This document shows positions 12,712 to 35,256 of a stretch of 39,559 nt of DNA, in pieces. Every line of letters starts with the position of its first letter. Within the stretch, counting starts at the first letter, position 1. The position numbers and the translations under genes were made by a program. The notes below the pieces were generated by a model that had not been told where the DNA came from, did not search any database, and saw nothing but the letters and a program-made list of their open reading frames with translations. Where the stretch lies: IMG/VR virus record IMGVR_UViG_3300043436_000952, positions 1-39,559 of that record; one strand, written 5' to 3'. Source of the stretch: a virus.

Positions 12712-12765
12712 ATCTTAGAGGTTTAATAGTTTAACTTTATATTTGTTATATTTATAATATAGATA
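12712..12765 (+). promoter_or_regulatory. intergenic leader with candidate Bacteroidota -7 element
   Basis: This is the only sizeable gap within the structural block. It holds TATATTTG at 12738-12745, which matches the Bacteroidota -7 consensus TAnnTTTG exactly. Transcription would begin near 12752, about 14 bases before the ATG at 12766. The -33 element is weak (TTAG near 12715). An AT-only inverted repeat, TATATT-tat-AATATA, lies at 12747-12761. A promoter here would separate the ejected-protein genes from the tail and cargo genes. AT-rich DNA produces such matches by chance, so confidence is moderate. Confidence 0.45.
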
Positions 12766-15363
12766 ATGGCTACTTACATTCAAGGTCTTACTGATTACAT
12801 ACCAAAGGCTGAGCCCTATAAACCCAATTTTGATTTTCTTAATACGGTTTTAGCAACAAGACAGGCTAGGTATGATAGTTCACTTAATCAATTAAGTGGC
12901 GCATATGGTAGCATTGTATATGCTGATCTCACAAGAGATGATAATAGAGTTGCTAGAGATAACTTCTTGAAGAACTCTGAAAAAGCTATTCAACAAATTA
13001 CAACTTTAGATCTTTCTGATCCTGCTAATGTACAATTAGCACAGCAAGTATTTCAACCTTTTGTAGATGATAAAAGAATGCAGTATGATATTCTGCTAAC
13101 AAAAGGAGCAAACAAAGCTAAAAAACAAGCTGATCTTTTTAAAAATTCTGGTGATCCAAATATTGCAAGTAAGTATTGGGATACTGGTGTTAGAGCTATT
13201 GACTATAAGTTATTAGAGTTTAAAAATGCTGACCAGGAAAAAGCCTATAAAATGGCCATTCCTAAGTATACACCATATATCAATATAGTAAAGGAAGCTA
13301 AAGACATCTTAGGAGATGACTTTAATATTAGTGTAGATGAGAAAATGGGTGGTTATATTGTAACTACTAAGAATGGTGATAAAGCTATTAATGCTATTCA
13401 TCAATACTTAGATGCTACTTTATCTACAGATCCTAGAGTTAGAGAGTACGCAAGTACATTAGCTTATGTATCATCTATGGATGATATAATGAATTTATCT
13501 CAAAACTATAACGGAGATATTAATGAAGCTAAGGCACAATATTATATTGGTAAATCTGGCGCTCTTATAGATAACGTAGATTCTAAGATTGAAGATTACA
13601 CACATGAGATGGCGGGAATTAATTCTAAGCTATTGATGTATGAATCTAGAATTGATAGGGGTGGTCAACTTACTGATAAAGAACAGAAAGATTTTCAAAA
13701 ATTAACTGCTGAAAAAGCTGTTTATGATAATGCTTTAAATTCTTTAGATGCTAATAAGGGTTCTTTAATAACAGCATTAGAAACAAATGATATATCTCAA
13801 TTAGAAAGATATAGCCAAAGTCTTATTGCTCAATCTAAAATTACAGATGAGATTGCTAAAGCTACACAGATTAATGCTTATAGGAATTATGAAAGAAGCA
13901 TGAAAGCTGATCCCTATGAAAAATCTCAATTTGATGCAGCCTTAGATTTTTCTTATTGGACTAAGAAAAAGTCTATGGAATGGGCAAGAGAAGATGCACA
14001 GAAAGCTTTAGAAAAAGCTGATAAAGAAGCTAAGGAAGCTGCCGGATCAGAACTTATGTCTACAAGAGTTCAAACAGAAGCTGGTAAAACAGATTCTTGG
14101 AATAATGATTTAAGTAGTAGAGATAATAGTTTAGGAGGTTATCATAACTCAGTAAAAGATGTAATTAATAATATTAGTGACTTAGGAGAAAGTGATCCTA
14201 AAATTAAACAGGCTTTAGATAATGCATTAAAGTCTACAGGTTTATCATATAATAATATTATGTCTGGAAACTATAACTCTATTGGTGTAAGTAATCTTAA
14301 TAAAGTTAATAATGCATTAGTATCAATGATTAAGGCTGATCCTAATATCTATAAGTCTCTTGGTAGTTTAGTATCTCAAATGAATACTAAAAAGCAAGTA
14401 GCTTATTCTAATGCAGGTCAATTACAAAAGAATAATAACGTTACAGTTATGAATCTAATGCGCTCTACAAATCTTTCTGCTGGTGAAAAAATAATTCTTA
14501 GAGAGATGTTTACAAAAGATGGAGCCTTATTAAGTGCTAAAAGTGCATATGATAGAGCTAAAACTAAAGCAGGCGTATCTGATTTAGATTTTGGATACTT
14601 TAAAAATGTTTATGATGATTTGCTTGATGATTTTGCATTAAACTATAATGAACAAGCAAGTAATAATAATCCATTATATAAGCCTGTAGGAATGTTAGGT
14701 GTAGGTGGTGGAGGAACTATGGTAGATTATGCTACTAGTGGTGTTGCAGATCCAACTAAACAAAAGTCTAGAAGCTACTTAGCATTTAAAGAACTATTAG
14801 ATGATGCTGGTAATCCGGGGTCTGTAGTAGCTTTAGGTTCACCAGCTGAACTAAGAGAGGCATCTGAAGGAAATATTGGTGCTATAACTAATGATCCATA
14901 TCTTAGAACTTATGTTGATGGATTAAATGTCACTATGCTTGCTAATAAAAAACCCGTTACTTTTTCATACTCTCTTTCTGGATTAGGTTCTACTAAGTAT
15001 AATACTTTAAATATTAAACCTAATGCTGAAGATCCTGCATTGAAAGCTTTAAAAGAGGGTAATAAAGAATTGTATAATAACATTATACAGAAAGGTATAA
15101 CTATATTTACTCCAGCAGCAGATGCTAGAAATAGAATTGCTAAAGGAGCTGCTTTAAGTGATGCTGAAATCATTCTTAATACTAATGGTAATTATGTATA
15201 TGATAATCCTAGAGTAGGTACAATCACATTTAGAAAACTAAGTGATAATAATTATAGTGCTAGCGGATTCTTAAATTCTGGAAATAAACAAGAACCAGTA
15301 AACATGACTGGTATTGATATCATTAAATTAAATAGTATTGTAAATACTTTTAATACTTTATAA
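12766..15363 (+). CDS. capsid cargo / ejection protein, crAss-like (865 aa)
   Basis: Probably an internal virion protein delivered with the DNA. The N-terminus (MATYIQGLTDYIPKAEPYKP, then YGSIVYADLTRDDN at about 46-59) closely recalls a cargo protein found just upstream of the virion RNA polymerase in crAss-like phages. Most of the chain is predicted helical and rich in Asn, Lys, Asp and Ala. A strongly charged helix at about 405-430 (AREDAQKALEKADKEAKEA) may be coiled coil. There is a glycine run near 650 (GVGGGGTM). I find no cysteine, no signal peptide and no catalytic motif. It follows the only likely promoter in the block and is separated from the next gene by 2 bases, consistent with one transcript through 34320. 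Confidence 0.8.
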   Translation: MATYIQGLTDYIPKAEPYKPNFDFLNTVLATRQARYDSSLNQLSGAYGSIVYADLTRDDNRVARDNFLKNSEKAIQQITTLDLSDPANVQLAQQVFQPFVDDKRMQYDILLTKGANKAKKQADLFKNSGDPNIASKYWDTGVRAIDYKLLEFKNADQEKAYKMAIPKYTPYINIVKEAKDILGDDFNISVDEKMGGYIVTTKNGDKAINAIHQYLDATLSTDPRVREYASTLAYVSSMDDIMNLSQNYNGDINEAKAQYYIGKSGALIDNVDSKIEDYTHEMAGINSKLLMYESRIDRGGQLTDKEQKDFQKLTAEKAVYDNALNSLDANKGSLITALETNDISQLERYSQSLIAQSKITDEIAKATQINAYRNYERSMKADPYEKSQFDAALDFSYWTKKKSMEWAREDAQKALEKADKEAKEAAGSELMSTRVQTEAGKTDSWNNDLSSRDNSLGGYHNSVKDVINNISDLGESDPKIKQALDNALKSTGLSYNNIMSGNYNSIGVSNLNKVNNALVSMIKADPNIYKSLGSLVSQMNTKKQVAYSNAGQLQKNNNVTVMNLMRSTNLSAGEKIILREMFTKDGALLSAKSAYDRAKTKAGVSDLDFGYFKNVYDDLLDDFALNYNEQASNNNPLYKPVGMLGVGGGGTMVDYATSGVADPTKQKSRSYLAFKELLDDAGNPGSVVALGSPAELREASEGNIGAITNDPYLRTYVDGLNVTMLANKKPVTFSYSLSGLGSTKYNTLNIKPNAEDPALKALKEGNKELYNNIIQKGITIFTPAADARNRIAKGAALSDAEIILNTNGNYVYDNPRVGTITFRKLSDNNYSASGFLNSGNKQEPVNMTGIDIIKLNSIVNTFNTL

Positions 15364-15365
15364 TT

Positions 15366-18300
15366 ATGGCAGAATTAGGACCAGATTTACAAGAAGATTT
15401 ATCTTTACCTCCTGTATTTCCTACACTATCAGTAAGTACTGGTTTAAATCCTTTACCTACAGATATTCCTTTGGTTCAGACAATAGATGATTTTAGTACA
15501 CCATCTATTCCTGCACCTGCTGATTTAAGTCAGTTTATTGTAGGTAATGCAGAAGCAAATTCAAGAGACCCGTATCAGGCTTTCATGGATATTGCTAGTA
15601 CTCCAACTAATGAGTCTGATATTTCAATTTATAAATCTAGACCTTACACATTTGCCTCTGGTTATAAGCGTGCTAACTTTGATAGATTTTATAATGATAG
15701 TGATAACTTCTATAAGCTAGGTTTTAATCCATATGCTAATAATGAAGAACTTTATAATTCTAATAGATCTTGGTATGAAGATTTAGGTAGAGCTGCATCT
15801 GGTATTCCTAATATGGGTTTATCATTTATTAAATCTATATATGGTTCAGATACCGGAGATGAGTATGCAAAATACAATGCTATCTATGGTAGTACTAAAG
15901 GTGGAGTTGCTGGATTTACTTCTAACTTAATTCTTAATACAGCACCCTTTCTTGCTATTGGTGCAGACTGGTTAGTAACAGAGGCAGCCTTAGCAGGTAT
16001 TACTGGTCTTACTGGTGGTGCCGCTTCTGTAGGAACTGCTCCATTGGCTGCTGCTAAAACTGTTAGCACTGCTGAAAAATTAAAATCACTTATTAATACA
16101 TTTAGAAGTGCTGATCAGATGCGGAAAAGTTTCACATTTGCTAATGCTGGTAAAGCAGCACTAAGATTTGGAGAAGCTGTTACACCATTTGCTAGTACGG
16201 CTAAAGCATTATTTGAAACTGGTAAAGCTGTAGGACAAGGAGAGAAAGTTTTAAATGCTGCTAGACTTGCCTCTAATGTTGGAACATTTGTTAGAGATAG
16301 TAAAAAACTATCATATGCATTTGGTGAAGCTAACTTAGAAGGTGATATGGTTAAAAATGAGTTTATTGATAACCGTATATCTGAGTTTATTACTGATAAT
16401 GGTTATTATCCAGATGAGCAAGAGCTAGATAAAATATATGAGTTTGCTGAGGATAGTAAGTTTACTACAACAATGATTAACATGCCATTGCTTTATTTAA
16501 GTAATGGTATTGTGTTTGATAACTTATTCAAAGGTGGTACTAAATCTTTATTCAAACCTAATAGAGCAATTGTAAAGAACTTCAGTAAGACCGGACAAAA
16601 CGTAGTTATTGAAGATGGTGTTGCTAAACTTACAACTGGATTTGCAGAGAACTTAAAGTTTGCAGCAAAAGGATTAGTAAGCCCAAGAAACTATGGAAAC
16701 TTTGCAGTTAAATATTTTGGTGCAAACGTTGCTGAAGGTTTACAGGAAGTAGCTCAAGAAGTTGTTTCAGGAGCTAGTGATGATTACTATACTGCTTTAT
16801 ATAAAACACCAGAAGGTGCTGGTGTTGCAATGTATTTAGCAGAAGCATATAATAATTTAAAAGAACAAAATTCAGCACAAGGTCTTGAAGTATTTGCTTC
16901 TGGATTCTTATTGGGCGGTTTAGCAAACATTGGAACTACTGCAGTAAGTGGAGTATTTAATCCTTTACAGAAATTATATACTCAGAGAAATCCTAACTAT
17001 AAAGATATCTATGATGCACAATCTAAACAAGCTCAGAAACTTGTAGAGGATCTTAATGATGCATTTAAAAACGGGTATAATGTATTTACTCCTGATGTAG
17101 AAAACTTACTTGTACAAATTAAGTTGGGTCAAGACATGGTAGATGCTAAACTATCATCATCATATGATGAGAAAGCATTCCATGATCTCAAAGATATGTC
17201 CAGATTTAATTCTGTATATACTGCTTTAGAAACTGGCAACTTTAATATTCTTACTGATAAGTTAAAGAATATGCAAGAGATGACTGGTGCTGAATTAAGA
17301 GATGCATTTAATCTTGATAATAGTGTAACAGATGAAGAAGCTAAAAAAGTTTTATCTGTAGCTTTAGAGAGAGCATATCAAATAGAAGGTCAGTATGATC
17401 AGTTTAAAGATATAGAGAATCCTTTTAATCCTAATAAGTTTAAAAAGTATAATCTTAAAGATAATCCTGAGAATCAAAAAGCATACTTTGATGAAGTTGC
17501 TGGTTATTATGGATTTGAAGAAGCACGTAAAACTGCTGTATTTAATTTACATGGTGTAAGACAAGCTACAAAACGTCTATCTGAGTTAACTGATGAGATG
17601 ACTAAGATTACTAGTGTGGGTAATTTAGCATTTACAGATGTAAAATCAGTATTAAGTACTGAGTCATTGCAAGATGAGTTAGATACTTTAGAGGATGAGA
17701 TTGCTAATTTGGGTGAAACAACAGATCCTAAATTAAAAACCATCTTAAAAAATAAACAGAGAAAGCAAAAAGATCTTGCATCATTTAAGAAAGAGTTTGA
17801 TAAAATCCAGGAAATGGAAGACTCTACTCTTATTGAAAAACGTAAAGCTCTTAAAAAAGCATTTACTAGATATATAAACAGATTAGCTGAAAACAATAAT
17901 GAAATTATTCCAGCTGATCAATTAGACAATCTATTTGGATTACTCTCTGATTACTATTCCTTATCTAAAGATGTAAGAAAGTATAATAACAATGTTACTG
18001 CTCTTACAGATCCTAATAACTTTTATGCAGAAGCATTAAGAAGAATTAATGCTAGGCGTGTAAGAATGGATAAGATGCAGGAGTATATGCAAGAAGCAGT
18101 TAAGACATTTACTAACGTTAAAAAGAGTAATGATTTAATTAATGATATTGCAGATGCTGGATTTACAATTGATCAAAAGACAATCAATGAGCAAGCTATT
18201 GCTGATTATGATTCTTTTGTAAATACATTACTTACAGATCCTGATGTAAAGTTTATTGATATTAACTCTGGTAATAGTTTTGGTAAGGATGACGCTAGAT

Positions 18301-19286
18301 TTGAGAGTATTAAAGAAGTAATAGATAACTTTAATACAGAGATAACTCCAGAGCAGCCAGTTACAGAAACTGTAGAAGAAGTAATAGAAGAACAGCCAGT
18401 AGAAACTGAAGAAGAAATTGGTGTTAAAGGTATACCAATTGTTATTTCACAAGCTCAGTTTAATAGATTACCTATTAAGTTACAAGGTAAACTCAACGCT
18501 AATTTAGCACAACAAAATTCTGCTAGGGAAGCTAATGGTGAACCAGAACTATCTTTAGAAAGATTCCTACGTACTAATACCGCTAAAGGTATAATCTCTG
18601 ATTACTTTAATGACCCTGCTAATGCTAAAGAAATTGAAGCATATAATAAAAAGAAACCAGTAACAAAAGCAGAAGTAATTACTACAGAAGAACCTGCAGA
18701 AGTTATAAAAGAAGAGGATAAGACTGATCCTTTAGAATCTTTTAGAGATAAGATTAGTAAAGCTCAGACAGTAAAAGATCTACAGGATATAGAAGTAGAG
18801 TTTGCAGAAACAGATTTGATTGAAGACTTAGATGCAATTGATGAAGTGAATGCATTAATAAATGATAAAAAGACTGAACTAATAAAAGAGTTTAAATTCT
18901 CAGATGTTAAAGTAAAAGATGTATTGGTTCTTAGTGATAATAAGTATCTTTTAGTAGAGAATATAACCGGAACAAAAATAACCGGTGTACCTTTGTATGG
19001 AAGATCTCTTACTCCAGGTAAAGACATTGATAAGAGAATGACAATAACTAAAACTAATTTCCAAAAAATGGTTCAGTCTATATATGATAAGGAATCTGAT
19101 ATTGCTGTGGGATCACAACAAACACCAGTTCCAACTACAGAAGAGAAAGAATTAATCACTAAAAATGCAGATCTGCAGATTAATTTCCTCGCTGATAAAG
19201 ATGCAAAAGAAGCTGCAAGATTAGAGGCTACAAATCAATCTGCAGATGATATAAATAATGAATTCTTAAACGGATTAGGCTGTTAA
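15366..19286 (+). CDS. large ejected virion protein with hydrophobic segment (1306 aa)
   Basis: Likely an internal virion protein that helps move DNA or polymerase across the envelope. The N-terminal 80 residues are Pro/Asp-rich and loose. Residues about 179-232 are Gly/Ala/Leu-rich (AGFTSNLILNTAPFLAIGAD, then AGITGLTGGAAS) and could insert into a membrane. The middle is helical, with a likely coiled coil at about 760-860 rich in Lys and Glu. Residues about 1000-1025 form an acidic Glu/Val/Pro linker, and a second linker lies at about 1095-1120. The protein ends in NEFLNGLGC. The final Cys1306 is the only cysteine I find in the whole chain. The next gene starts 4 bases later with Cys at position 3. 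I do not recognise a named domain; the role is inferred from position and composition. Confidence 0.75.
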   Translation: MAELGPDLQEDLSLPPVFPTLSVSTGLNPLPTDIPLVQTIDDFSTPSIPAPADLSQFIVGNAEANSRDPYQAFMDIASTPTNESDISIYKSRPYTFASGYKRANFDRFYNDSDNFYKLGFNPYANNEELYNSNRSWYEDLGRAASGIPNMGLSFIKSIYGSDTGDEYAKYNAIYGSTKGGVAGFTSNLILNTAPFLAIGADWLVTEAALAGITGLTGGAASVGTAPLAAAKTVSTAEKLKSLINTFRSADQMRKSFTFANAGKAALRFGEAVTPFASTAKALFETGKAVGQGEKVLNAARLASNVGTFVRDSKKLSYAFGEANLEGDMVKNEFIDNRISEFITDNGYYPDEQELDKIYEFAEDSKFTTTMINMPLLYLSNGIVFDNLFKGGTKSLFKPNRAIVKNFSKTGQNVVIEDGVAKLTTGFAENLKFAAKGLVSPRNYGNFAVKYFGANVAEGLQEVAQEVVSGASDDYYTALYKTPEGAGVAMYLAEAYNNLKEQNSAQGLEVFASGFLLGGLANIGTTAVSGVFNPLQKLYTQRNPNYKDIYDAQSKQAQKLVEDLNDAFKNGYNVFTPDVENLLVQIKLGQDMVDAKLSSSYDEKAFHDLKDMSRFNSVYTALETGNFNILTDKLKNMQEMTGAELRDAFNLDNSVTDEEAKKVLSVALERAYQIEGQYDQFKDIENPFNPNKFKKYNLKDNPENQKAYFDEVAGYYGFEEARKTAVFNLHGVRQATKRLSELTDEMTKITSVGNLAFTDVKSVLSTESLQDELDTLEDEIANLGETTDPKLKTILKNKQRKQKDLASFKKEFDKIQEMEDSTLIEKRKALKKAFTRYINRLAENNNEIIPADQLDNLFGLLSDYYSLSKDVRKYNNNVTALTDPNNFYAEALRRINARRVRMDKMQEYMQEAVKTFTNVKKSNDLINDIADAGFTIDQKTINEQAIADYDSFVNTLLTDPDVKFIDINSGNSFGKDDARFESIKEVIDNFNTEITPEQPVTETVEEVIEEQPVETEEEIGVKGIPIVISQAQFNRLPIKLQGKLNANLAQQNSAREANGEPELSLERFLRTNTAKGIISDYFNDPANAKEIEAYNKKKPVTKAEVITTEEPAEVIKEEDKTDPLESFRDKISKAQTVKDLQDIEVEFAETDLIEDLDAIDEVNALINDKKTELIKEFKFSDVKVKDVLVLSDNKYLLVENITGTKITGVPLYGRSLTPGKDIDKRMTITKTNFQKMVQSIYDKESDIAVGSQQTPVPTTEEKELITKNADLQINFLADKDAKEAARLEATNQSADDINNEFLNGLGC

Positions 19287-19290
19287 TAAT

Positions 19291-22200
19291 ATGAATTGTA
19301 CACTAACTCTTGAGCAACAAAAGCAATTTTATAAGAAAGTATTTAAAGATCTTTCTGCCACAGTATCAGATGGTAAAGACTTTGATATTAAAAATTATAT
19401 CTTAGACTTTTATAATCTAGTTAATAATAAGACTAATGATAGTAGTCTTGCATTAAGTTATGCTCAACTATTACCAGAGAATGTAATTAACGTTACAGCT
19501 GATGATAGAAACATTGCTAAGTACTTAAGGAGTAAAGGTGTAGATCTTAATACCATATATGACTTAAGAGACCAGTTTGAAAATATTCCTACTGTTGAGA
19601 AGTATGTATCTGCTACTGTATTAACTGAAGATAAGCTTGCTGATATTAGAAAGAAAGCTGGTCTTATTGGTTCTCAGTTAGAAAAAGCTGCAGAGTCAGA
19701 TCCTGATGTAGACTTTCAAGCAAAGCCAGCTACTGGTTTTACAACAACCGGTCAAGAAGAGTTATTAGATGATAATGGTATTCCAACAGGGGAAGAAGAT
19801 CCTGATCCTGTTAAAATTGCTAGTTATGCATTTACAAGAAACTTATTAAGAAACTTAAATGCAACTAACTTATCAAACGCGGATACATTAAAGTTAGAAG
19901 CTTTAAATGGTACCGAGATAGTTGGTATTTATCTTTCACCAATTGATATAGTTAAGAATGGTAAGAGCTTAGTAAATCTTACTTTTAAAACTAAGGTAGA
20001 TGATACCTATAAGCAGATCTATTTAAATTCAGATGGTATAGTTACCTATATAGAAGGACAAGATCCTGTAGAAGGTTCTATTCTTCCAATAAGTGATTTT
20101 AGAACTCCAAGTAGTGTTTCTGGAAAAGCTGATTTCTTTAAACGTGGTACTAAAGAACTTACTGTACAAACAGTTGAAGAACAAGTAGAATCTATTATTG
20201 ATAAAGCTAGAAAATCTAATCTAGAGATTCCTAATAGAGAACAGTTAACTGCTCAGTTTCAAAATAAAAGAAATAACGAGGTTAACTTTATTAATCAGAT
20301 GGTTAAGAGTTTTATCAAGAATAAAAGCTTAACTATTCCTTTAAGTATTAGTGGTGGTAAACTAGGTTTTAGTTTAACCTATGGCTCTTATGTACCATTG
20401 TCCCAGATTAAAGATATTGCTGATAACAATATTAATTTTCAGTTTGATAAGTCTGGAGCAGCTTACATGAAAATTAATAAGTATTATAACTTATTAAGGG
20501 TTAGACCGGATAAAATTAATGCTGATTTAGCTTCTAATCTATCTAAGTTATTGATGGATAAAGGTGTAAGTAATCCTCAGAAGTATTTAGTGTTTGAAGC
20601 AATCTTAAATCCGGATGATGCAAACGTAAGACTTATATATAATAATACTAAAGATGTATTGTCATTATATGTAAATGGTGTTCAAGCATTTGATTCTACT
20701 ATTATTGAAGATGCTGATCAAGACTATTTAACTGAGCAATTACAGAATGCTTATATCAATATCAATAAGAAATACTTTGGTACAAGTATAGAGATACCAA
20801 GTTATGTTGGAGAAAACTATACTCCATATACAATTGATTATACAAGTTTTATTAAATCTAATGCTACAGCTGATGCTACCTTACGTAATGACGGTAGCAT
20901 TAAACAATTTAATTCAACATTAAATTTTGAGCCTACCTTAGATGCTAATAAAATTATCTTTCCTGAAAAGGAAGTTATTACTACAGAAACTAAAACTGCA
21001 GTTAAATCTAATCAAGAAGTAAATACTAGTTTTGGCGGATTTAAAGGAAGCATAAATTTAGATCTCATTAATGAGATTAATAGCTCTCTTAAAAGAGCCG
21101 GCTTTAAACCAGTAAGTGTATCTGAAGAGAAGATTAAAGAAATAAAGAACTGGTATAGTTCTTTAGAAGTATTAGTAGATGGTGTGCCAACTAAATTCTC
21201 AGAGGTATTACCATTTAAAGAATCATTTAGTTTAATTAACTCTGATGTATTAGGTACATTCACTACTGCCGGTATAACATTATATGCTAAAGCTGGTAAT
21301 ATTGATTACACTACTTTGTATCATGAAGCTTGGCATGCATTCTCTCAGTTATTATTAACTCCAGAACAGAAGAAGAGTCTATACGATACAGTAAGAGCTA
21401 ACATTAAGAAGTTAAATAAAGCAACTGATAAAGTTGTAGAAGAATATTTAGCAGAAGATTTCCGTAATTATGTACTAAGTAATGGTAGTAAAGTAAATAC
21501 TAAAGGTACTGAGAACATATTCCAGAAATTATGGCGTATTCTTAAGTCTATATTCTCAGGTCAAACTGAAATTATTGATGCTACAGAGATTCCTGTAATT
21601 AAAACTATGTATGATAATCTTAGATTGGGTAACCTATTTGAGTATGAATACAGTTTAGATAATGTACAGTTTGGTAAACTTAATCGTGGTATTGAGTCTT
21701 TAGATAGTAAAGATAAAGGACTTAGTTTATCTAATAGTAGATTACTTGTAGATTCTATTGATGGATCATTTGCTGAGTTGATTGATAAAAGTGAATTAAA
21801 CTTTGCAGCTCTTTATAAAAATAAAGGAGCTTTAGAATATTTATATCAGCTTACTAAAGAAAGCTTCCAAGAAAAATTAGATTTCTTTAGAAATGAGATA
21901 GCTAATGATCCAGATGGTATAAATACTATAGCCAGAAATAACGTTGCTATTCTTGAATATGCAATTGATAATTTTGGAGACTTTAATGATGTATTATCAG
22001 GAAAGCAAAAGAATGGTTTGATTGCTTATCATAAGCAAAAATCTAAATACTTAGAGATTGAGGCTAAACTATTAGAGGCAGAAGAAGATAAATCAGATGT
22101 AAAAGATATTGAGAAATTTGAGCGTACAGGTAATGATCTATCTCTTAAAGAGTTAACATCTAATCAAACTCTTTACTTAGTTAAGAGTATGTACGAGGTT

Positions 22201-25200
22201 AATAAGAATGGTACACCTAAGTATAATAGATTAGGATTTAATAAACTTGTAGATTTTAATAAGGCTTGGAGTATTATCTCTAAAAACTTAATTGGATCAA
22301 ACTCCTTTGATGATATCTATACAAGATTAATTGGTTTACAAAATCAGTATCCTCCAGTTGCACAGCTATTAAGTAAGTTAGGTAATCCGGAAAATACATT
22401 AAACTCTAATACTGAGTTTAATAAGTGGATTGCATTTACACAAACCTTTAATAAGACCGTTGTACCAATCATTGAGCAAAGATTAGTTAGTACAACTAAT
22501 CCTGATGGAACAACTTCTATCTCTACATATATACAGAGAGCAACGGGAGATATTTCTAAGATAGCTAGTAGCTTTAAAAATAAGTTTAGTACATCTAGAA
22601 ATGAGTACATCACTAAAGAAAAAGGAACAAACTATCTAAACCTTTCTGCAGTACTTAATAAGTTTAAAACTATTAATAATACTAATGCATTTGATTTCTT
22701 AAATGCTATAGGATTTTATTTGGATGATAATAAGTCTGTTAAATCTGCTATAGAGAATTCATTTGATTTACGTTATACTCAGACATCTATTCAGTATGAC
22801 TATATCTTAGAAGCATTAAAGAATGCTAAAGAAAAGAATATATTTATTCCAGATCCTATAAAATACTTAAGGAGTGAGAAAGGTGGTAATCAAGCTACTA
22901 ACGTAAGCAAGATTCTTGAAATCCAAGCTCAATATGGAAATGCAGATTTTGGTTCAGCTATAACTAACGTAGAGGGTAATACCGAGTTTGAAACACAATT
23001 GCGTAACTCTTTAACAAATATTGTAGATGATCTTAATAAGTTAACTTATATAGATCAAATGATTGATGATGCTAAGTATGAGCATTTAAGATATTACCAT
23101 CCGGCAATTAATCCTTATGCAAAGCACTCATACATTATTAAATCTCTATTTGATCAAACTGGTAATAGAAGATCTGATGTTACTCTATCTGTAGAAAACC
23201 TTGGTGGTCTTAGAAGAGATGTAGATGGTGTTACTATTAATGGAGTAAAAACCAATAAGCTTAATATCTATGACAAGTATTTGTATGATGTACATGCAAC
23301 TATCTTAGGAGGTACTCCAGAATTACCACGTCATGCTAGTAAGAGTTCTTCATATGGTGTAGCGTTAAATAAAAAGTATACTGGACGTACTGTAGATAAT
23401 TTATATTTACCTATCCGGTCAATTGCTTTCTCTTCAGATAATGGTGTAACTGAAGCAATGCCTTTAATTACTAATTACTTAATGGCAGAACTAGAGAGAA
23501 TTTGGTATGTTAAAAATATTAAATCTCTTAAGAACGTAGATACACTATCTAAGAATGGTGATAAGATTGTAGCTTTTGATTCAGTATTATCAGCAGAAAC
23601 AAAGCAAAGCTTATATGGTATTGTAAATAAAGCTAAATCTATTTCAGATATAGTAATTAATAAGAAGTTACAAGAAGATATTTATACAGATACCTTTAGT
23701 TACTTCAATAATCAATTTGCTGAGAACTTAGATATCTGGAAAGATTTAAGCACTGTAACTAATGGTCAAGTATTACTAAGTCCTGAAGTAAGAATTAAAC
23801 TCTTAAAAGAAACTAGAGTAGGTAAATCAGAGGCTAATAAATATGCTTCATCTAGTGAGCAGATTAACTTAATCATTAAAACTTTTACCTTTAATAACTG
23901 GTTCAATAACTTTGAGATGCAGTTATTCTATGGTGACTTATCTCAGTTTGATCATCTAAAAGAAGAGTTCCACAAGCGTAATGCTTCTATTGCATCTACC
24001 GGAGAATTTGCAATTGTAGATAGATATACATTAGGTTATTTAAATGCCACTAGTCAGAATAGTTATGCTAAGTCAATTGATATTTCTACTAAGGAATTCA
24101 GTAACAAAGCTATTACCACTGTTCTTGATGATGCACAACCAAATTCTATATACTATGATTACTATGCCTCTCTTTTATTAAGTATGGGTATTGATGAATC
24201 TAAGGTAGTTAACACTTTAAAACCATACAAGAAGATTAAAGAAGGTGATGCTCAAGGTTGGGTAACATTTGATTTCTATCGTAACTTCTTAAGATCTATT
24301 AATAAGTGGTCACAGGATCAAGAGAATTTGTATAATCAAATTATCAATGATCCAGAGTCTGTAAATCCCCATAAGGTAAAAGAGTTCTTCCCTGTTCTTA
24401 AAGCTAGTTACTATGGTCCTTTAAAAACTGAGTTACTAAACGTTACAGCTTTACATAAGTTTTCATTAATGCCTTTAGTTCCTACAGTAGTTAAAGGAAC
24501 TAACTTAGAGCAATTCCATAAGCAATTATTAGAACAAGGTGTAGATTATGCATTATATAAATCTGGAAGTAAGGTTTCTAATATTACATTAAATGATGGT
24601 GTGATTCCTTCTATGTATAAAGATCTTAATAAAAGAGAGTTGTATGATGGACCATATGCATTAAATGGTATTTACTTACCATACTTTAAAAACCAGTTAG
24701 ATATTGCCCCATACTTTAAAGAGCAAGTTACTTTAGCTTCTCAGTTACGTAAGATTATTGAAAACAACTTATATGAGTCTGGTAAGCCTATTAAAAAAGA
24801 ATACGCTGCAGTTGTAGAACAGTATGAGAATTCCGTTAAAAGCTATGTAGATTTCTATAAAAACAAATTGTTTAAAGAAGTTGGAGTAGAGTTTGATGAT
24901 AATGGTAACATTAAAAAGGGAGATCCAAAAGATTTAATTAAAGCAATTGAAAGAGAGTTAGTTAGATTAGAGGTTCCTGATTTCCAATTAGATATTCTAG
25001 AAACAAATGAGGATGGTACATTAAAGAATAACTTTGATAGTATTATAAACTCTGAATCTATTGAAAAACAATTAGTTGCAATCATAGAAAGAAAGATTGT
25101 AAGACCTAAAATAAAAGGTGAGCAGCTAGTACAAGTTTCTGGTTCTGGCTTTGAGCAATATGGTTTTAGTAAACCTTTTGGTGAAGATCTTTTAAAGTAT

Positions 25201-28200
25201 GGTACAAACGGTCTTAAATTCTATACTGTTGAGAATGATAAGATTCAACCTATGCAAGTTAAAGTTGCATTACAAGGTGATTTCTTAAAGCTTCTTACTG
25301 TTACTTATGAAGGTTCTAAAATAAATACATTAGAGAGATTAAATGAGGCTATTAAGAATGAGGGTTGGTTAAAGGATAATGCTAATCTATTAAAGATGAT
25401 TGGTGTACGTATTCCAACTCAAGGTCTTAACTCTATAGAATACATGCAGGTTGCAGAATTTTTACCTGCAGAAGCTGGTTCTGTAATTATAGTTCCAACA
25501 GAACTTGTGGCTAAGTCTGGATCTGACTTTGATATTGATAAGTTAAGTATTGTAATGCCAAACATTACAGTACTTACAGAAGAATTAGAGGAGTTACAAA
25601 AATTATATCCTGATATTGATATGTCAGATATAATTACTAAAACTGCTAATCTTACTAAGGATGATACTAAAGTTCAAGCTATGGAGAATAATATTCTTAA
25701 TTCTATGATTTCTATTATGGAACTTAAGGATAACTTCCCTCAGCTTATTACTCCTAATGAAACAGATATTGTTAAACCTATCTCTGAAGATTTAGCAAAG
25801 TACAATAGAGAGTATAATCCGGTATCTAAAAGAGCCAATCAGGATTCTGCTTTTAAAACTATATCTCCTACTAGAGCTTTAGAGATTAGATATAACTTAT
25901 ATAAGCATGAAGCAAATAACATTGGTAAGTTAACCATTGGTATTGGTGCCGTATCTAATACATATAACGTTATTCTTAATAGAGTAGGCGCATTCTTAAA
26001 TGATACCTATGAGTTTAAAGATAATAAGGGTAATCCAATAACTCGTAAGTCTAGACTTCTTTTACCTTACAATGATTTAAACGGTAAGATATCTTTGTCT
26101 GGATTAACTTCAGAAGATGGTGCTCATTATATCTCTGATGTAATATCTCAGCTCATGAATGGTTGGGTAGATATTGAAAAAGATACATGGGTGTTTGATA
26201 TGAATGCTATCTATGAGTTAGCTCCAACTATGTTATTCATGTTACAAGCCGGTATTAATGTAGAGACTGCAGCTTATTTCTTATCTCAACCTTTGATCCG
26301 GGATTATATTAAAGCATCAAGAGTATACAATAGTTTATATAATAATGCGCTTGATTCTTCTCCAGAGAATGAGAAAGGTAGAGGATTACTTAACTATAAA
26401 GCAAAGCGATTTGTAATTGAGAATAATGATCTATTGGGTAATATATTTAGCCCATCTATTTATGAGAAGTTTTCTTATGCAGATAAAAAGGTACTTAATA
26501 GTAATTCTATTAGTAAGTATCTAGGAGGTAAAAAATCTATTGGGCCTGCTGTAGATCTATTTATAAAAGGTTTTGGTAAAGAGTCATTTACTGCAGATGA
26601 TATTAAAAATATTGTAAGTAGTAATGATAGAAAATCATCTGCTGCACAATTGGCATTCTTACATTTCTTAGAGATAGAAGAGCAGTCAAAAGTGATGATT
26701 CAGATTGCAAGAGCTACTAACGTAGATACTAGAAAATCTGGTAACTTATTCCAAGCGCAATCTAGAATTACTAGACTAGAAGAATTACAAGAGGGAGATA
26801 GATTACCTAAAGAAGTTGTTGATCGTATTATTAATGAGTCTCCAATTTCTGCATTCTTTATCCAAGATTATTTATTAAATGTATTTAAAGATTATTTCCC
26901 ATTAAGAGCAAATAATGTAATTAATAGTTATATAAGTGATTATATATCAAATAATTATAACAAAATACTTAATGAATATAAAGATGTAGATACATTTATT
27001 TCTAGATTTAGAAATGATATTTTGCAATTCATTATGCAAAATTCAATTGGTGTAGTTGATATAGATTCAGTAAAGACTTATAAAGGTTTTAGTTTAGAGA
27101 ATACAGATACTGCATCAATAGAAAAGACAAGAGGTCTAGTAAAAAGCGCTGCATATATAGATGGTAAAATTTATGTAGATAGAGAACTCTTAAGAAAAGA
27201 GTATAACCAGAAGCTTTATAACCTAGATACATATGGTCAAGGCACACTGTACTCTTTACCTAAAGATTTATCTACAGATTTGATTCCTTACTTCTCAACT
27301 GAAAAGCAATATGCCGGTTTTGTATTAGAGCGTGAATTTTTACGTGGTACTACAGAGAGATTACAGGATGAAACTGATACTGCTTTTGAAGAAAGAATTG
27401 CTAATAATGCATTGGATAATATCTTTAATTCTAAAAAGATCTTCTTTACTAAAACAAGTTTTGCAGATCAATTAGAAGCCATTAAAACTATCCCTGGATT
27501 AATAGAGCAGTATAGTTTACTTGAAGATAACTTAGTTTATGACGCACAGCAAGTAAAGAAAGAAGGTAAAGTATATACCATCAAGAATATTAAACTTGTA
27601 GGAGATACAAAAGATGCAGAATTCCTAGCTGATATGAATGCTCAGTTTGAAGAGTTAGCAGATCCTTCTGTTCAGAAAATAGCAGATCCTGTATTAAACC
27701 GTGAGGTATCTTATTTCTTTAATAAGTTATCTATCTATGGTTTCATCCAATCTGGTATGAATAAATCAAACATAACCTTTATTCCTATTCTATCTAGTAA
27801 GAATTTTAAAGATGTTATGCGTGAGCCAGTAAAAACATTTGCTAATATCTTATCTTCAGATAAACAAAAAGGTTTTTCTATATTGTATAACTATACAAAT
27901 GCATTTAATAATAAATCTAATAGTTATAGATTTAAGAGTTATGTAATTGATAGTACTATTAATAAGTTAGGAAAGTCTTTAAAAGCATTACCTGCAGGAA
28001 TCAGTAGTACGCTTACTCCTAGAGTTTATAATTTTAACTTAAGTCTTAAGAAAGATGCGGCTAATACTATAGATCATATTAATAACTATCCAGAACTAGT
28101 AGGTACATATGGTATGGCATTAGATAACACTGGAATTAATAACGTTAAGATTGATACTGTATTAGGAAATACAACTAGAGTTAAAGGCAATTCAATAGGC

Positions 28201-28602
28201 TTACCAATGTACAAATCTTTATTAGGACAACCTACTTTATTACAAGTAGCAGATCACTCTGAAAACTTAACAATTATTACTGATGTAATTAAGCACTTAA
28301 AAGAGTCATATGATTCTGGAAAGTCTTTATTGTTCAATAAAGAGGGGTATAGTATTAGTTTTGATGATGTAAATACTGATAAAGAAGCTTACTTTGAGTT
28401 ATTTAAAGAACTTTACTATAACTTTGGGTATCTTAATCCTAAGCTTGAGAATAATTCAGAGTTTATGAACTATATTTATTCTGTACAACCACTTAACCAA
28501 AATATTCTGGAAGCAGCTGAAGAGGATGTAGAGGATAAAAACATTGTAGCTGATGCTGATCCTTTAACTGATCCTGAGTGTGGTCCAAATTCAATAATGT
28601 AA
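19291..28602 (+). CDS. virion DNA-dependent RNA polymerase, crAss-like, with fused zincin-like domain (3103 aa)
   Basis: Single-chain RNA polymerase carried in the virion and ejected to transcribe early phage genes, as shown for gp66 of Cellulophaga phage phi14:2. The key evidence is SGSDFDIDKLSIVMP, with the metal-binding DFDID at residues 2079-2083. It is preceded by R2040-I-P-T and by an FLPAEAGSVIIVP strand, matching in order and spacing the R-P-T ... NADFDGD region of cellular beta-prime subunits. The N-terminal third contains a zincin-like site, HEAWH at 678-682, with a downstream E in YLAEDF (E722). The chain is longer than I recall for phi14:2 gp66 (about 2200 aa). Only two cysteines are visible, C3 and C3097, one at each end. 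It begins 4 bases after the upstream TAA. The polymerase call is strong; the zincin activity is inferred from motif only. Confidence 0.92.
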   Translation: MNCTLTLEQQKQFYKKVFKDLSATVSDGKDFDIKNYILDFYNLVNNKTNDSSLALSYAQLLPENVINVTADDRNIAKYLRSKGVDLNTIYDLRDQFENIPTVEKYVSATVLTEDKLADIRKKAGLIGSQLEKAAESDPDVDFQAKPATGFTTTGQEELLDDNGIPTGEEDPDPVKIASYAFTRNLLRNLNATNLSNADTLKLEALNGTEIVGIYLSPIDIVKNGKSLVNLTFKTKVDDTYKQIYLNSDGIVTYIEGQDPVEGSILPISDFRTPSSVSGKADFFKRGTKELTVQTVEEQVESIIDKARKSNLEIPNREQLTAQFQNKRNNEVNFINQMVKSFIKNKSLTIPLSISGGKLGFSLTYGSYVPLSQIKDIADNNINFQFDKSGAAYMKINKYYNLLRVRPDKINADLASNLSKLLMDKGVSNPQKYLVFEAILNPDDANVRLIYNNTKDVLSLYVNGVQAFDSTIIEDADQDYLTEQLQNAYININKKYFGTSIEIPSYVGENYTPYTIDYTSFIKSNATADATLRNDGSIKQFNSTLNFEPTLDANKIIFPEKEVITTETKTAVKSNQEVNTSFGGFKGSINLDLINEINSSLKRAGFKPVSVSEEKIKEIKNWYSSLEVLVDGVPTKFSEVLPFKESFSLINSDVLGTFTTAGITLYAKAGNIDYTTLYHEAWHAFSQLLLTPEQKKSLYDTVRANIKKLNKATDKVVEEYLAEDFRNYVLSNGSKVNTKGTENIFQKLWRILKSIFSGQTEIIDATEIPVIKTMYDNLRLGNLFEYEYSLDNVQFGKLNRGIESLDSKDKGLSLSNSRLLVDSIDGSFAELIDKSELNFAALYKNKGALEYLYQLTKESFQEKLDFFRNEIANDPDGINTIARNNVAILEYAIDNFGDFNDVLSGKQKNGLIAYHKQKSKYLEIEAKLLEAEEDKSDVKDIEKFERTGNDLSLKELTSNQTLYLVKSMYEVNKNGTPKYNRLGFNKLVDFNKAWSIISKNLIGSNSFDDIYTRLIGLQNQYPPVAQLLSKLGNPENTLNSNTEFNKWIAFTQTFNKTVVPIIEQRLVSTTNPDGTTSISTYIQRATGDISKIASSFKNKFSTSRNEYITKEKGTNYLNLSAVLNKFKTINNTNAFDFLNAIGFYLDDNKSVKSAIENSFDLRYTQTSIQYDYILEALKNAKEKNIFIPDPIKYLRSEKGGNQATNVSKILEIQAQYGNADFGSAITNVEGNTEFETQLRNSLTNIVDDLNKLTYIDQMIDDAKYEHLRYYHPAINPYAKHSYIIKSLFDQTGNRRSDVTLSVENLGGLRRDVDGVTINGVKTNKLNIYDKYLYDVHATILGGTPELPRHASKSSSYGVALNKKYTGRTVDNLYLPIRSIAFSSDNGVTEAMPLITNYLMAELERIWYVKNIKSLKNVDTLSKNGDKIVAFDSVLSAETKQSLYGIVNKAKSISDIVINKKLQEDIYTDTFSYFNNQFAENLDIWKDLSTVTNGQVLLSPEVRIKLLKETRVGKSEANKYASSSEQINLIIKTFTFNNWFNNFEMQLFYGDLSQFDHLKEEFHKRNASIASTGEFAIVDRYTLGYLNATSQNSYAKSIDISTKEFSNKAITTVLDDAQPNSIYYDYYASLLLSMGIDESKVVNTLKPYKKIKEGDAQGWVTFDFYRNFLRSINKWSQDQENLYNQIINDPESVNPHKVKEFFPVLKASYYGPLKTELLNVTALHKFSLMPLVPTVVKGTNLEQFHKQLLEQGVDYALYKSGSKVSNITLNDGVIPSMYKDLNKRELYDGPYALNGIYLPYFKNQLDIAPYFKEQVTLASQLRKIIENNLYESGKPIKKEYAAVVEQYENSVKSYVDFYKNKLFKEVGVEFDDNGNIKKGDPKDLIKAIERELVRLEVPDFQLDILETNEDGTLKNNFDSIINSESIEKQLVAIIERKIVRPKIKGEQLVQVSGSGFEQYGFSKPFGEDLLKYGTNGLKFYTVENDKIQPMQVKVALQGDFLKLLTVTYEGSKINTLERLNEAIKNEGWLKDNANLLKMIGVRIPTQGLNSIEYMQVAEFLPAEAGSVIIVPTELVAKSGSDFDIDKLSIVMPNITVLTEELEELQKLYPDIDMSDIITKTANLTKDDTKVQAMENNILNSMISIMELKDNFPQLITPNETDIVKPISEDLAKYNREYNPVSKRANQDSAFKTISPTRALEIRYNLYKHEANNIGKLTIGIGAVSNTYNVILNRVGAFLNDTYEFKDNKGNPITRKSRLLLPYNDLNGKISLSGLTSEDGAHYISDVISQLMNGWVDIEKDTWVFDMNAIYELAPTMLFMLQAGINVETAAYFLSQPLIRDYIKASRVYNSLYNNALDSSPENEKGRGLLNYKAKRFVIENNDLLGNIFSPSIYEKFSYADKKVLNSNSISKYLGGKKSIGPAVDLFIKGFGKESFTADDIKNIVSSNDRKSSAAQLAFLHFLEIEEQSKVMIQIARATNVDTRKSGNLFQAQSRITRLEELQEGDRLPKEVVDRIINESPISAFFIQDYLLNVFKDYFPLRANNVINSYISDYISNNYNKILNEYKDVDTFISRFRNDILQFIMQNSIGVVDIDSVKTYKGFSLENTDTASIEKTRGLVKSAAYIDGKIYVDRELLRKEYNQKLYNLDTYGQGTLYSLPKDLSTDLIPYFSTEKQYAGFVLEREFLRGTTERLQDETDTAFEERIANNALDNIFNSKKIFFTKTSFADQLEAIKTIPGLIEQYSLLEDNLVYDAQQVKKEGKVYTIKNIKLVGDTKDAEFLADMNAQFEELADPSVQKIADPVLNREVSYFFNKLSIYGFIQSGMNKSNITFIPILSSKNFKDVMREPVKTFANILSSDKQKGFSILYNYTNAFNNKSNSYRFKSYVIDSTINKLGKSLKALPAGISSTLTPRVYNFNLSLKKDAANTIDHINNYPELVGTYGMALDNTGINNVKIDTVLGNTTRVKGNSIGLPMYKSLLGQPTLLQVADHSENLTIITDVIKHLKESYDSGKSLLFNKEGYSISFDDVNTDKEAYFELFKELYYNFGYLNPKLENNSEFMNYIYSVQPLNQNILEAAEEDVEDKNIVADADPLTDPECGPNSIM

Positions 28603-28605
28603 TCT

Positions 28606-31600
28606 ATGAGTAACTGTTTATTATTTAAGAGTTCTAAACTTAATGCATATAACTATGGTGTTTTTAATAAACTTTTTAATTTACCAGAAGGTTTTACTGC
28701 AGAAAAGCTAGCGGAAAAAGAGGGTGTATCAGAAATTGTATTATATCCAATACATACAATGCTTTCACCAAAAGCATTACAAAGAACTTATGATAAAGAA
28801 TTAAAGAGGTCTATTACATTACTAGAGTTATATAATGAAAAGCTTAAAGAAAGAGCTCTTAAAAATTATAACATTGAATTGGGCCCCAATGAAAACTTTA
28901 TTACTATAGCTGAAGATAATCAAAGAAGATTGTATGCAAACTTTAATGATTTCTTATTTGATGTTGTAGATGGTAAAAGAAAAGAGAATGGTAGTTACGA
29001 TGCTAAACTCACATCAAGTTCTGATATCATACCAATTAAAGATATTCCTGATGGATCTGTTAGTTTTTATAGAGAAGACTTTGATGATCAGTTAGATTTT
29101 TTTAATAGTTTATTCCCGGATGTAGCACAGCAAGAAAATGTAAAAGCTCAAGAAGCTATTACAAAGCTTGCAAATAAATTAGTTGATCAAGTAGGTATCG
29201 GATATCAAATGATATCTGCTCAAGAAGCTACAGATTTAACTAAGGATACAACTAATCCTTGGACTGGAGAATCTGCTTTCTTTTATAATAACAATATATA
29301 TTTTGTAGAAGGTGGCTTTAAATTAAATACGGTTCTTCATGAGTTCTCTCACCCTGTTGTAAGAAGTCTTGCAATTGAGAATCCTACTCTATTTAATAAC
29401 TTATATAATCAGTATATAAGTTCTGTAGAAGGCGCTGAGACTTTATCAAAGGTAGAACTCTTATATCCTGAGTTAGATGGTACAGACCAACTCTTCCAAG
29501 AAGAAGTGTTAGTAAGAGCTCTTGAAACCGCTGCAGTTAATAAAGTAAACAACGTACAAAACTCTAATCCATTTAAGAAATTCATTACCAATATTATCTA
29601 TGCTATTAAGCAATTAATGCGTAAGTTATATGGTGATAAGATTAAGTTGGATAAGTTATCTGAGACTACTACAATAGATGAACTCTCAAACATGTTATTG
29701 GGAGATACCTTTGTACTTACTACACAAATCATTACTCCGGATGATGTAGTTCAATATATGCGTAGTAATCAAACTATGTATAATGATCTACAACAAGTAG
29801 ATAATGATGTATTAGTAAAAGTAGTTAACAGATATTTTACTAATGCCGGCTCACTTCTTTCTAGAATTCGTACAAATAAGAACTACTCTGATTTTGTAGA
29901 AGCTATTAAGAATGAATCAGGTAGAACTATTCTACAAGATATTGTCTCTGACTTACGTACTGCAGAAACAACAACTGTAGATGATAAGGTTAAAAAGTTT
30001 AAAGATGAGTTAGATAAAAGAGAGAAACAAATTACCTCTCTTGTAAGAACTACAATTCAGACAGATGTCTTAATGAATAGGATTATTGACCAGCTTAATA
30101 ATCTTAATAAGATGTCTGATACCAAGGAAGTTATTAGTAACACCTTCTATTATGATTTGCTTGTAAGAAACTGGAGCAAGATAATGGAGGAGAGTATCAA
30201 TGGCTTAAGTGATGCTGGATTACGTACAGATAGTTCTTTATTTCAGTTATTCAGTAGAATCTCTGAGAAAACAAAACAAGCAGATAGAATCATTAACTCT
30301 ATTTACAAAAGAGGTGTTGGTGGTGTATTAGAGGATGTATTAAGTCCATTAGCTAAAAATGTAGATAGTCATTTTGAAACTAAATTAAAAACACTTAGAG
30401 ATAATAACGCTTCTCCAAAAGAAATTAAAAAGACTCAAGAAGAGTGGGATAGATTAAAACTAAACCGCGCTACAATTGATGATTACTTATCAGGTATGCG
30501 TGGTGATGTTAATTCTATTTCAGCTTATGTAGAATCATTTGCGAGTTCACCAGATCCAATTATCTCTAGCTTTGCTGTATATGTAGATAATGCTTATACA
30601 GATGTAGAGTTAAAAAGTAAAGCTAATAAAGATAGTTTTATTTCTGAGTTGTTACCTGTTTTAAAAGACGCTGGTTATTCTGATAAGAACATTACTGATC
30701 TTATGAAAGATCTAGTATATGAAGATACAGTTGTAACACGTAACAATAATGGTGAAGCTGAAGAGTTTAGTAAGTTAGTATTCTTAAATCCTTGGAAAGG
30801 TTACCAAGCTGTAATTGATAGATTACAGTTTGATATTGAAGAGGCTAAAAGAGTAAATGATTTAGATAAAGCTAGACAACTTAATCAGGTTGTAAGACAG
30901 TTTTATAGAGATTATATGTATGATGAATATGTTCCGGAGTTTTATGCTAAAGAACAAATTTATGATTCTGAGTTAGGTAGGATTGCATATGAAAGAAAAC
31001 AAAATATTTTAGCAGAGATTGCTGATATTGATAGAAGAGTATTTGATGAGTTTACTGAGGATGAAGCTTTTGAGCAAAAGAAACTTCTTTGGAAAAAGTA
31101 TAGTCAGTTAGCATCATTACGTGATGAGTCTGGTACTATTAAAGCTGGTGATGATTTAGAGACTGCTAAGATAGAAAAGAAGTATAGAGATGAGAGTAGA
31201 AAATTCTATGAGTGGAAAGAGATTACCGGCTTATTCCAATACAGACTTGATCAGTATAAGCAAGATTTATTAGACCAAGGTCTTAGTGCTAACCCAGAAG
31301 AGTTTAAAGAATTAGTAGATCAATGGTTAACTGATAATACTAGAGTATCTATTAATGAAGATTTCTATAAAAGAAAGCAGCAGATCATAGATAAAATTAA
31401 AACTATTACAGATAAACTTCCAGTTAATGTGTCTAAACGTTTGGACATTGGTAAAAAATGGGAGGAGATTATAGATATAGTTATTGGTTTTAGAAATGAT
31501 GATGGACAACCTGTTGGCTCAGAAATGTCTGAGAATAGACTTAAGAGAATAAAAGAGTTACAACAAGAAATCTTAGATTCTCAAAACAATCTTGCTGGCT

Positions 31601-34697: not shown

Positions 34698-35255
34698 ATG
34701 AGTTTTACTAGAGAACAAATTGAAGCAGCTGTTAAAGCTAAGAGCTACAAGTATTTTGAAAACGGAGAATTCAATATCAATGTAATTGGTATTCGTAATA
34801 GTGCAACCGGACAAAAAGTTACCAATGCATTTGATGATTGGATGACTTTAAGTTACAAAGAGGGTGGAGAATGGAAGTTCCATATCTGGCCTTGCACCAC
34901 AGACAATGGTGGAGGAACTGCTCGTGTTAAACCAGGACAATATCCAGGATCACATGGTGTAGGTCTTCACCAAGGTAAATACAAATGTCTTAAACAGAAA
35001 GCACCTCTTACTGTATTTCGTGACTATACTAAAGATGGAGTATACCAAGAAGACAAAACTGAAACAGGTGTATTTGGAATCAACATTCACAAAGCAGGAG
35101 TAGATTCTGCTCAAGTAAATGACTGGAGTCATGGTTGTCAAGTATTTAAAAAATCTGCTGATTTTGATAAATTTCTTGCTATCTGCGAGAAAGGTGCTAA
35201 ATTACAGGGAGATTCTTTTACTTACACTTTGATTAAATCAGAAGATATTAAATAA
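34698..35255 (+). CDS. probable endolysin, L,D-transpeptidase/carboxypeptidase-like fold (185 aa)
   Basis: Probable peptidoglycan-cleaving lysis enzyme. The C-terminal half has FGINIHKAG with H131 and WSHGCQVF with S144-H145-G146-C147. This H...SHGC pair resembles the active site of YkuD-type L,D-transpeptidases and related phage L,D-carboxypeptidases. Upstream are FHIWPCTTDNGG (about 55-66) and HQGKYKCLKQKAPLTVFRDY (about 91-110), which I recall from endolysins of Bacteroidota and marine phages. There is no signal peptide or membrane anchor, so it would need a holin, and holin-like genes lie on both sides of the cassette. The family match is from memory; an amidase or endopeptidase specificity is possible. 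The stop is one base before the next ATG. Confidence 0.7.
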   Translation: MSFTREQIEAAVKAKSYKYFENGEFNINVIGIRNSATGQKVTNAFDDWMTLSYKEGGEWKFHIWPCTTDNGGGTARVKPGQYPGSHGVGLHQGKYKCLKQKAPLTVFRDYTKDGVYQEDKTETGVFGINIHKAGVDSAQVNDWSHGCQVFKKSADFDKFLAICEKGAKLQGDSFTYTLIKSEDIK

Positions 35256-35256
35256 T

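What the first reader, a model, noticed from the sequence alone, without database searches (positions are those of the whole stretch)
21322..21455. Zincin-like site fused inside the RNA polymerase protein
HEAWH (678-682) with E722 in YLAEDF lies in the N-terminal third of the same polypeptide as the polymerase. A protease in cis could release the polymerase after entry or cut the linked neighbours at their Cys-marked ends.
Basis: partly seen in the sequence, partly recalled or inferred. Interest (0 to 1): 0.6.

Follow-up and report, generated by a model that had tools for sequence, protein, structure and literature searches.

The report
Zincin domain beside phage's carried polymerase
A crAss-like phage carries into its host a giant RNA polymerase protein with a conserved, probably working metal-dependent protease domain built in, and the giant proteins around it have almost no cysteines except at the ends where neighbours meet, as if coupled end to end like train cars.

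Summary
HEAWH (678-682) and E722 lie in a 3103-aa protein whose polymerase motif DFDID is at 2079. The window is a crAss-like phage; its polymerase matches the solved phi14:2 enzyme (6vr4). In loci collected through the polymerase alone, all 72 whose reading frame reaches that far carry the domain, always HExxH. E718, also invariant, is the better third zinc ligand. A homologous second zincin lies just beyond the polymerase, in the next protein. AlphaFold gave no recognisable fold for the first; the second weakly resembles M34/PPEP gluzincins.

A zincin joined to a virion polymerase is not new: published for N4-like phages, annotated in crAssphage cr110_1. Its cutting role stays inference. Cutting at the 'Cys-marked ends' is unlikely: those are ordinary gene ends.

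Following that remark gave something I found in no held paper. The giant proteins' interiors are almost cysteine-free (27 in 664,415 residues); cysteines sit on both sides of 180 of 185 gene joints and not at outer ends; extra gene splits add pairs, fusions lose them. I infer a head-to-tail disulfide chain of ejected proteins.

The parts
19291..28602 (+). Giant polymerase polypeptide, 3103 aa: zincin A near the N-terminus, virion RNA polymerase in the middle
   Evidence: polymerase profile to 6vr4 E 1.5e-13
20977..21702 (+). Zincin A domain (residues 563-804)
   Evidence: profile match in the window and in all uncut homologues; alignment A2
21322..21336 (+). HEAWH, zinc-binding and catalytic motif (residues 678-682)
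   Evidence: invariant HExxH
21442..21444 (+). E718, most likely third zinc ligand
   Evidence: 100% conserved; aligns with the invariant Glu of zincin B
21454..21456 (+).
25525..25539 (+). DFDID, RNA polymerase catalytic motif (residues 2079-2083)
28606..34320 (+). Next giant protein, 1904 aa, holding zincin B; last link of the inferred chain; its only Cys is residue 4
29128..29736 (+). Zincin B domain (residues 175-377), HEFSH at 245-249 (29338-29352), invariant E300 (29503-29505)
15366..19286 (+). Preceding giant protein, 1306 aa; first link of the inferred chain; its only Cys is the last residue
19281..19283 (+). C1306, C-terminal cysteine of the first link (joint 1, left side)
   Evidence: conserved position
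19297..19299 (+). C3, N-terminal cysteine of the polymerase protein (joint 1, right side)
28579..28581 (+). C3097, C-terminal cysteine of the polymerase protein (joint 2, left side)
28615..28617 (+). C4, N-terminal cysteine of the last link (joint 2, right side)
10027..15363 (+). Two large proteins (894 and 865 aa) before the chain, in the position of cargo proteins C1 and C2; no cysteine at all
   Evidence: assignment by gene order (inference)

Best explanation
The site is the active site of a conserved gluzincin-type metalloprotease domain (zincin A) that sits just N-terminal to the virion RNA polymerase of a crAss-like phage. A homologous zincin (zincin B) sits just C-terminal to the polymerase, in the next protein. 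These giant proteins are ejection cargo: they travel in the virion and enter the host with the DNA. Shown here: the conserved catalytic residues, the homology of A and B, the fixed position relative to the polymerase, and the cysteine pairs at the ends of the giant proteins. Inferred: the cargo proteins are coupled head to tail by disulfides between those terminal cysteines; they thread through the tail one after another; the bonds are reduced in the host cytoplasm; and the zincins then cut within the delivered chain, freeing the polymerase from its flanking domains.
For: HExxH is invariant in a set chosen without reference to it, and E718 is 100% and E722 99% conserved. Zincin A and zincin B profiles align motif on motif with score 39.8, against at most 19.8 for 60 column shuffles and 29.6 for 60 shuffles that keep the motif; with the motif masked they still align in the same register. 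The HExxH-to-DFDxD distance is nearly constant in cis (1384-1688 aa, median 1525, n = 105). In crAss001, where the zincin is in a separate gene (gp47, opposite strand) and the polymerase in gp50, the distance summed across the two proteins is 184 + 1483 = 1667 aa; in cr128_1 it is about 1756. The corresponding crAss001 proteins gp47, gp49 and gp50 were found in virions by mass spectrometry (PMC10172136). Self-processing by zincins fused to N4-like virion polymerases has been proposed (PMC5512222). Terminal-cysteine pattern.
Against: No proteolysis is shown for any crAss-like phage in anything I could read. The N4 virion polymerase is packaged uncut although it holds such a domain (PMC5512222). 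crAss001 keeps zincin A although a gene boundary already separates it from the polymerase, and phi14:2 has no zincin A that the profile finds. Zincin B has lost the first His in crAss001 (EEFAH) and cr118_1 (EEVMH). The AlphaFold model of zincin A matched no known fold.
Confidence: 0.45

Rival explanations
1. The zincin is an effector: once ejected it cuts host proteins (defence, envelope or transcription proteins) rather than its own chain.
For: Zincins in injected polyvalent proteins are thought to act this way in some cases (PMC5512222). It is retained in crAss001 where it is already on a separate polypeptide from the polymerase.
Against: It stays at a nearly fixed distance from the polymerase along the chain, and a paralogue brackets the other side; a free effector would have no need of that position.
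Confidence: 0.25
2. The zincin works before or during assembly, trimming cargo proteins to let them be packaged.
For: Phage P1 DdrB is cut before packaging, and the zincin-bearing region of the N4 polymerase is needed for encapsidation (PMC5512222).
Against: Both terminal cysteines of the polymerase protein are conserved, which is hard to explain if the ends were removed before packaging. The passages read on crAss001 cargo give predicted full-length masses and mention no processing.
Confidence: 0.12
3. The domain no longer cuts anything; it is a structural or metal-binding element of the cargo.
For: Zincin B is degenerate in some phages, so proteolysis by that copy is dispensable. No fold match for the zincin A model.
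Against: Zincin A keeps both His and the general-base Glu in every complete homologue seen; a structural relic would be expected to lose the Glu somewhere.
Confidence: 0.13
4. Chance HExxH in a large protein.
For: None beyond the shortness of the motif.
Against: Expected 0.007 per protein of this composition and invariant across divergent homologues.
Confidence: 0.01

Closest known systems
N4-like virion RNA polymerases fused to zincin-like metallopeptidase (MPTase) domains (Iyer et al. 2017, PMC5512222)
   Same: Zincin in the same giant virion polypeptide as an RNA polymerase that enters with the DNA; release by self-cutting already proposed there.
   Different: N4 polymerase is of the T7 type with the zincin downstream (residues 2130-2448); here the polymerase is of the crAss-like DFDxD type, zincin A is upstream and a second zincin lies in the next protein.
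crAss-like 'RNAP associated protein fused to zincin protease' (e.g. cr110_1 gp39, NC_055879; crAss001 gp47 region)
   Same: Same transcription/cargo gene block and same place in the linear order: zincin just before the polymerase. crAss001 gp47 is a profile-level homologue of zincin A.
   Different: In those phages the zincin is at the C-terminus of the preceding protein; in the window and its relatives it is inside the polymerase polypeptide. The zincin A profile does not reach cr110_1 gp39, whose motif is HENLH.
phi14:2 gp66 virion RNA polymerase (PDB 6vr4)
   Same: Homologous polymerase, neighbours with the same terminal-cysteine pattern.
   Different: gp66 (2180 aa) carries no zincin; only the zincin-B-like site HEIMH in gp65 is seen.
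M34 / PPEP gluzincins
   Same: Best fold matches of the zincin B model among solved structures (M34 lethal factor rank 1, PPEP-3 ranks 3 and 5).
   Different: Matches are weak (E 0.65-1.2), no sequence-level match; membership not claimed.

Membership tests
Zincin (HExxH metallopeptidase superfamily) | HExxH motif conserved in the family | tested here: met
   invariant in all complete homologues, including the polymerase-anchored set
Zincin (HExxH metallopeptidase superfamily) | Third ligand Glu on a following helix (gluzincin) | tested here: met
   E718 100%, E722 99% conserved; both lie on a confidently modelled helix after the HExxH helix
Zincin (HExxH metallopeptidase superfamily) | Zincin core fold with three-stranded sheet and converging ligands | tested here: inconclusive
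   zincin A model matches no solved fold; zincin B model, homologous by profile, has weak best matches to gluzincins
Zincin (HExxH metallopeptidase superfamily) | Zinc binding and proteolysis | not testable with these tools
   needs biochemistry
crAss-like virion RNA polymerase | DFDxD motif and sequence homology to phi14:2 gp66 | tested here: met
crAss-like virion RNA polymerase | Located in the crAss-like structural/transcription block | tested here: met
   CrAss_Ring_1 and CrAss_Ring_2 genes in the window; same gene order as phi14:2 and cr118_1
N4-like virion polymerase-MPTase | T7-type polymerase module | tested here: not met
   the polymerase is the DFDxD type, homologous to 6vr4
Polyvalent-protein MPTase clades (PMC5512222) | Membership in one of the 12 published clades | not tested
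   alignment files not available here; no Pfam match above cutoff
M34/PPEP peptidases | Sequence or strong fold similarity | tested here: inconclusive
   weak fold matches of zincin B only

The most novel reading that the evidence does not exclude
The ejected giant proteins of crAss-like phages are coupled head to tail by disulfides between a C-terminal cysteine of one protein and an N-terminal cysteine of the next, making one covalent train of about 6,300 residues in this phage. It travels through the tail in order and falls apart in the reducing cytoplasm, while zincins on both sides of the polymerase cut it free. Interior cysteines have been purged so that only the right ends can pair.
Probability: 0.55. 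Interest if true: 0.88.

Novelty: new variant of a known kind. Interest (0 to 1): 0.62.

Why it matters
How a phage pushes multi-megadalton protein cargo through a narrow tail in the right order, and how the polymerase is freed inside the host, is open for the most abundant gut phages; PMC10172136 says the order is likely set by packing and by interactions among the proteins. If the terminal cysteines couple the cargo proteins end to end, that gives a simple, testable mechanism for ordered ejection, with reduction as the natural release switch and the bracketing zincins as candidate cutters. It can be checked with a non-reducing gel and cross-link mass spectrometry on cultured phages (crAss001, phi14:2).

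Tried and rejected
Pfam and PHROGs gave no confident family for zincin A or B. The zincin A AlphaFold model (most core blocks pLDDT 79-94, mean 69.9) gave no fold match in PDB or BFVD, so it is not used as support for the fold. A single-sequence search through the polymerase found only a near-identical copy of the window; a profile search was needed. E722 as sole third ligand: replaced by E718. Cleavage at the Cys-marked ends: rejected, because the proteins are separately translated and the cysteines track gene boundaries. A DNA- or RNA-level cause for the terminal cysteines: unlikely, because offsets vary (positions 3-6 from the start, 1-7 from the end), both codons are used, and crAss001 gp47 keeps its C-terminal Cys although it lies on the opposite strand from gp50. 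Several paper searches gave nothing on a crAss zincin or on cysteine-coupled cargo. The 2018 crAss-like phage paper and the 2020 phi14:2 polymerase paper are not held, so prior mention there cannot be excluded.

Full report
What is there. The window is a crAss-like phage: it holds CrAss_Ring_1 and CrAss_Ring_2 tail genes followed by a block of giant proteins. The ORF 19291-28602 encodes 3103 aa with HEAWH at 678-682, E718 and E722 in EEYLAEDF, and DFDID at 2079-2083. A profile of the DFDID region matches PDB 6vr4, the virion RNA polymerase of Cellulophaga phage phi14:2, with E = 1.5e-13, and a search with the same region finds 142 phage records including crAss001.

Is the site real? Expected HExxH in a protein of this composition: 0.007. 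A first scan gave 80 loci; in 69 distinct sequences H678, E679 and H682 are 100% and E722 is 99% conserved. Because the motif was one of the seeds, a second scan used only the polymerase. All 72 loci whose frame is not cut upstream carry the domain, always with HExxH but with changing middle residues (HEAWH, HEGWH, HESWH, HEAFH, HESFH); the 7 without it begin at a contig edge. Over both sets and the named phages 114 distinct complete sites have HEH with Glu at both 718 and 722, and one has Asp at 722.

Which Glu? E718 is invariant and aligns with the invariant Glu (E300) of a second zincin; E722 tolerates Asp. I therefore take E718 as the probable third ligand and E722 as second shell. This is inference.

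Second zincin. The next protein (28606-34320, 1904 aa) has HEFSH at 245-249 and invariant E300. The two zincin profiles are homologous beyond the motif: score 39.8, against at most 19.8 for 60 column shuffles and 29.6 for 60 shuffles that keep the motif; with the motif masked the remaining columns align in the same register. The zincin B model (mean pLDDT 84.3) has gluzincins among its best fold matches (M34 lethal factor rank 1, PPEP-3 ranks 3 and 5), but with E above 0.6. Zincin B has lost its first His in crAss001 and cr118_1, whereas zincin A kept HExxH wherever it was complete.

Position along the chain. The distance from HExxH to DFDxD is 1384-1688 aa in 105 loci (median 1525). In crAss001 the zincin is at the C-terminus of gp47 on the opposite strand, and the polymerase is gp50; summed across the two proteins the distance is 1667 aa. 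In cr118_1, cr4_1, cr1_1, cr53_1, cr60_1 and cr273_1 both are in one polypeptide. So the linear order of domains is conserved while gene boundaries move. cr110_1 gp39 is annotated 'putative RNAP associated protein fused to zincin protease', so a zincin in this block is known.

The cysteine pattern. In the window the 1306-aa protein has one cysteine, its last residue. The polymerase protein has two, C3 and C3097. The 1904-aa protein has one, C4. The two proteins before them have none. In 87 distinct complete polymerase ORFs of roughly 2.4-4.8 thousand residues most have exactly two cysteines; 86 of 87 have one within 8 residues after a start Met and 87 of 87 have one in the last 10. Over all loci 92 of 97 upstream joints and 88 of 88 downstream joints have cysteine on both sides. 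Four of the five exceptions have it 18-24 residues from the end, and one reflects the choice of start codon. First proteins lack an N-terminal cysteine in 56 of 57 cases; the one scored otherwise is L093, where the upstream gene is missing from the tiling and the polymerase was taken as first. Of 35 last links, 25 lack a C-terminal cysteine and the 10 scored with one are loci in which no further long ORF follows the polymerase before the fetched stretch ends. Interiors hold 27 cysteines in 664,415 residues. Extra gene splits carry extra pairs (L003, L004, L006, L007, L078, L150). Where the first protein and the polymerase are fused (cr118_1, Fpv1, cr4_1, cr1_1) that joint's cysteines are absent while the other joint is kept. 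phi14:2 (gp67 C1797; gp66 C3, C2179; gp65 C3) and crAss001 (gp47 C2339; gp50 C5, C2404; gp49 C5) show it too. Gut phages, several with recoded TAG, have more interior cysteines; cr110_1 has its first cysteine at residue 17 of the annotated protein, two residues after a second Met, and cr273_1 has its last cysteine 50 residues from the end, so these two fit less well.

Reading of it. Adjacent-end pairing explains the counts for two, three and four proteins and the loss on fusion; pairing of a protein's own two ends does not. Disulfides do form in crassvirus virions (tail and gp57; PMC10172136), and that paper does not mention the cargo proteins' cysteines in the passages searched. The chain is inferred; no disulfide has been observed.

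Function of the zincin. Three readings remain: cutting its own chain after entry, cutting host proteins, or acting in assembly. The bracketing of the polymerase by two zincins and the fixed spacing favour the first; retention in crAss001 across a gene boundary and the uncut packaged N4 polymerase (PMC5512222) weaken it. I put the whole first reading at 0.45; that the domain is a zincin at all I hold at about 0.9.

Novelty. A zincin joined to a virion polymerase, and the self-cutting idea, are published for N4-like phages (PMC5512222) and annotated in crAss-like phages. What is added here: an unbiased demonstration of invariance, a second homologous zincin on the other side of the polymerase, the conserved spacing across gene boundaries, a corrected ligand, and the cysteine-joint pattern, which I did not find in the held literature. 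Two key papers are not held, so priority is not certain.

Noticed in passing
15366-34320 and loci L002-L161: Cysteines of the giant ejection proteins are confined to the ends that face a neighbouring protein (92/97 and 88/88 joints with Cys on both sides; 27 interior Cys in 664,415 residues). Suggests a head-to-tail disulfide chain; the most novel thing seen here.
   Followed up: yes
L162 (crAss001) 22533-29558, minus strand: gp47, with zincin A at its C-terminus and a single Cys three residues from the end, lies on the opposite strand from gp50 and gp49, yet its ends fit the same protein-level order.
   Followed up: yes
L162 10954-18192: The polymerase profile (which matches phi14:2 gp66/6vr4) and a DFDVD motif fall in crAss001 gp50, whereas PMC10172136 speaks of the crystal structure as that of a gp49 homologue.
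   Followed up: partly
L172 6840-7085 and L170 24282-24551: Thioredoxin-like genes are annotated within about 3 kb of the giant-protein genes in cr128_1 and cr8_1; a possible link to making or breaking disulfides.
   Followed up: no
36373-38265: Phage gene with two cohesin stretches and a type IX secretion C-terminal sorting domain (Por_Secre_tail, E 8e-10): a phage protein apparently exported by the host's own secretion system.
   Followed up: partly
35924-36376: 150-aa protein with a signal-peptide-like start and its own HExxH (HESLH) followed by EKEE; weak PHROG match of unknown function (phrog_1365).
   Followed up: no
34698-35943: Endolysin-like gene (weak PHROG match) next to a GIY-YIG/NUMOD3 homing-type endonuclease.
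   Followed up: no
L131 13411-20553, L106, L115: Some last-link proteins carry two zincin-B-like domains (e.g. HEFSH at 120 and HEYSH at 1185 in L131).
   Followed up: no
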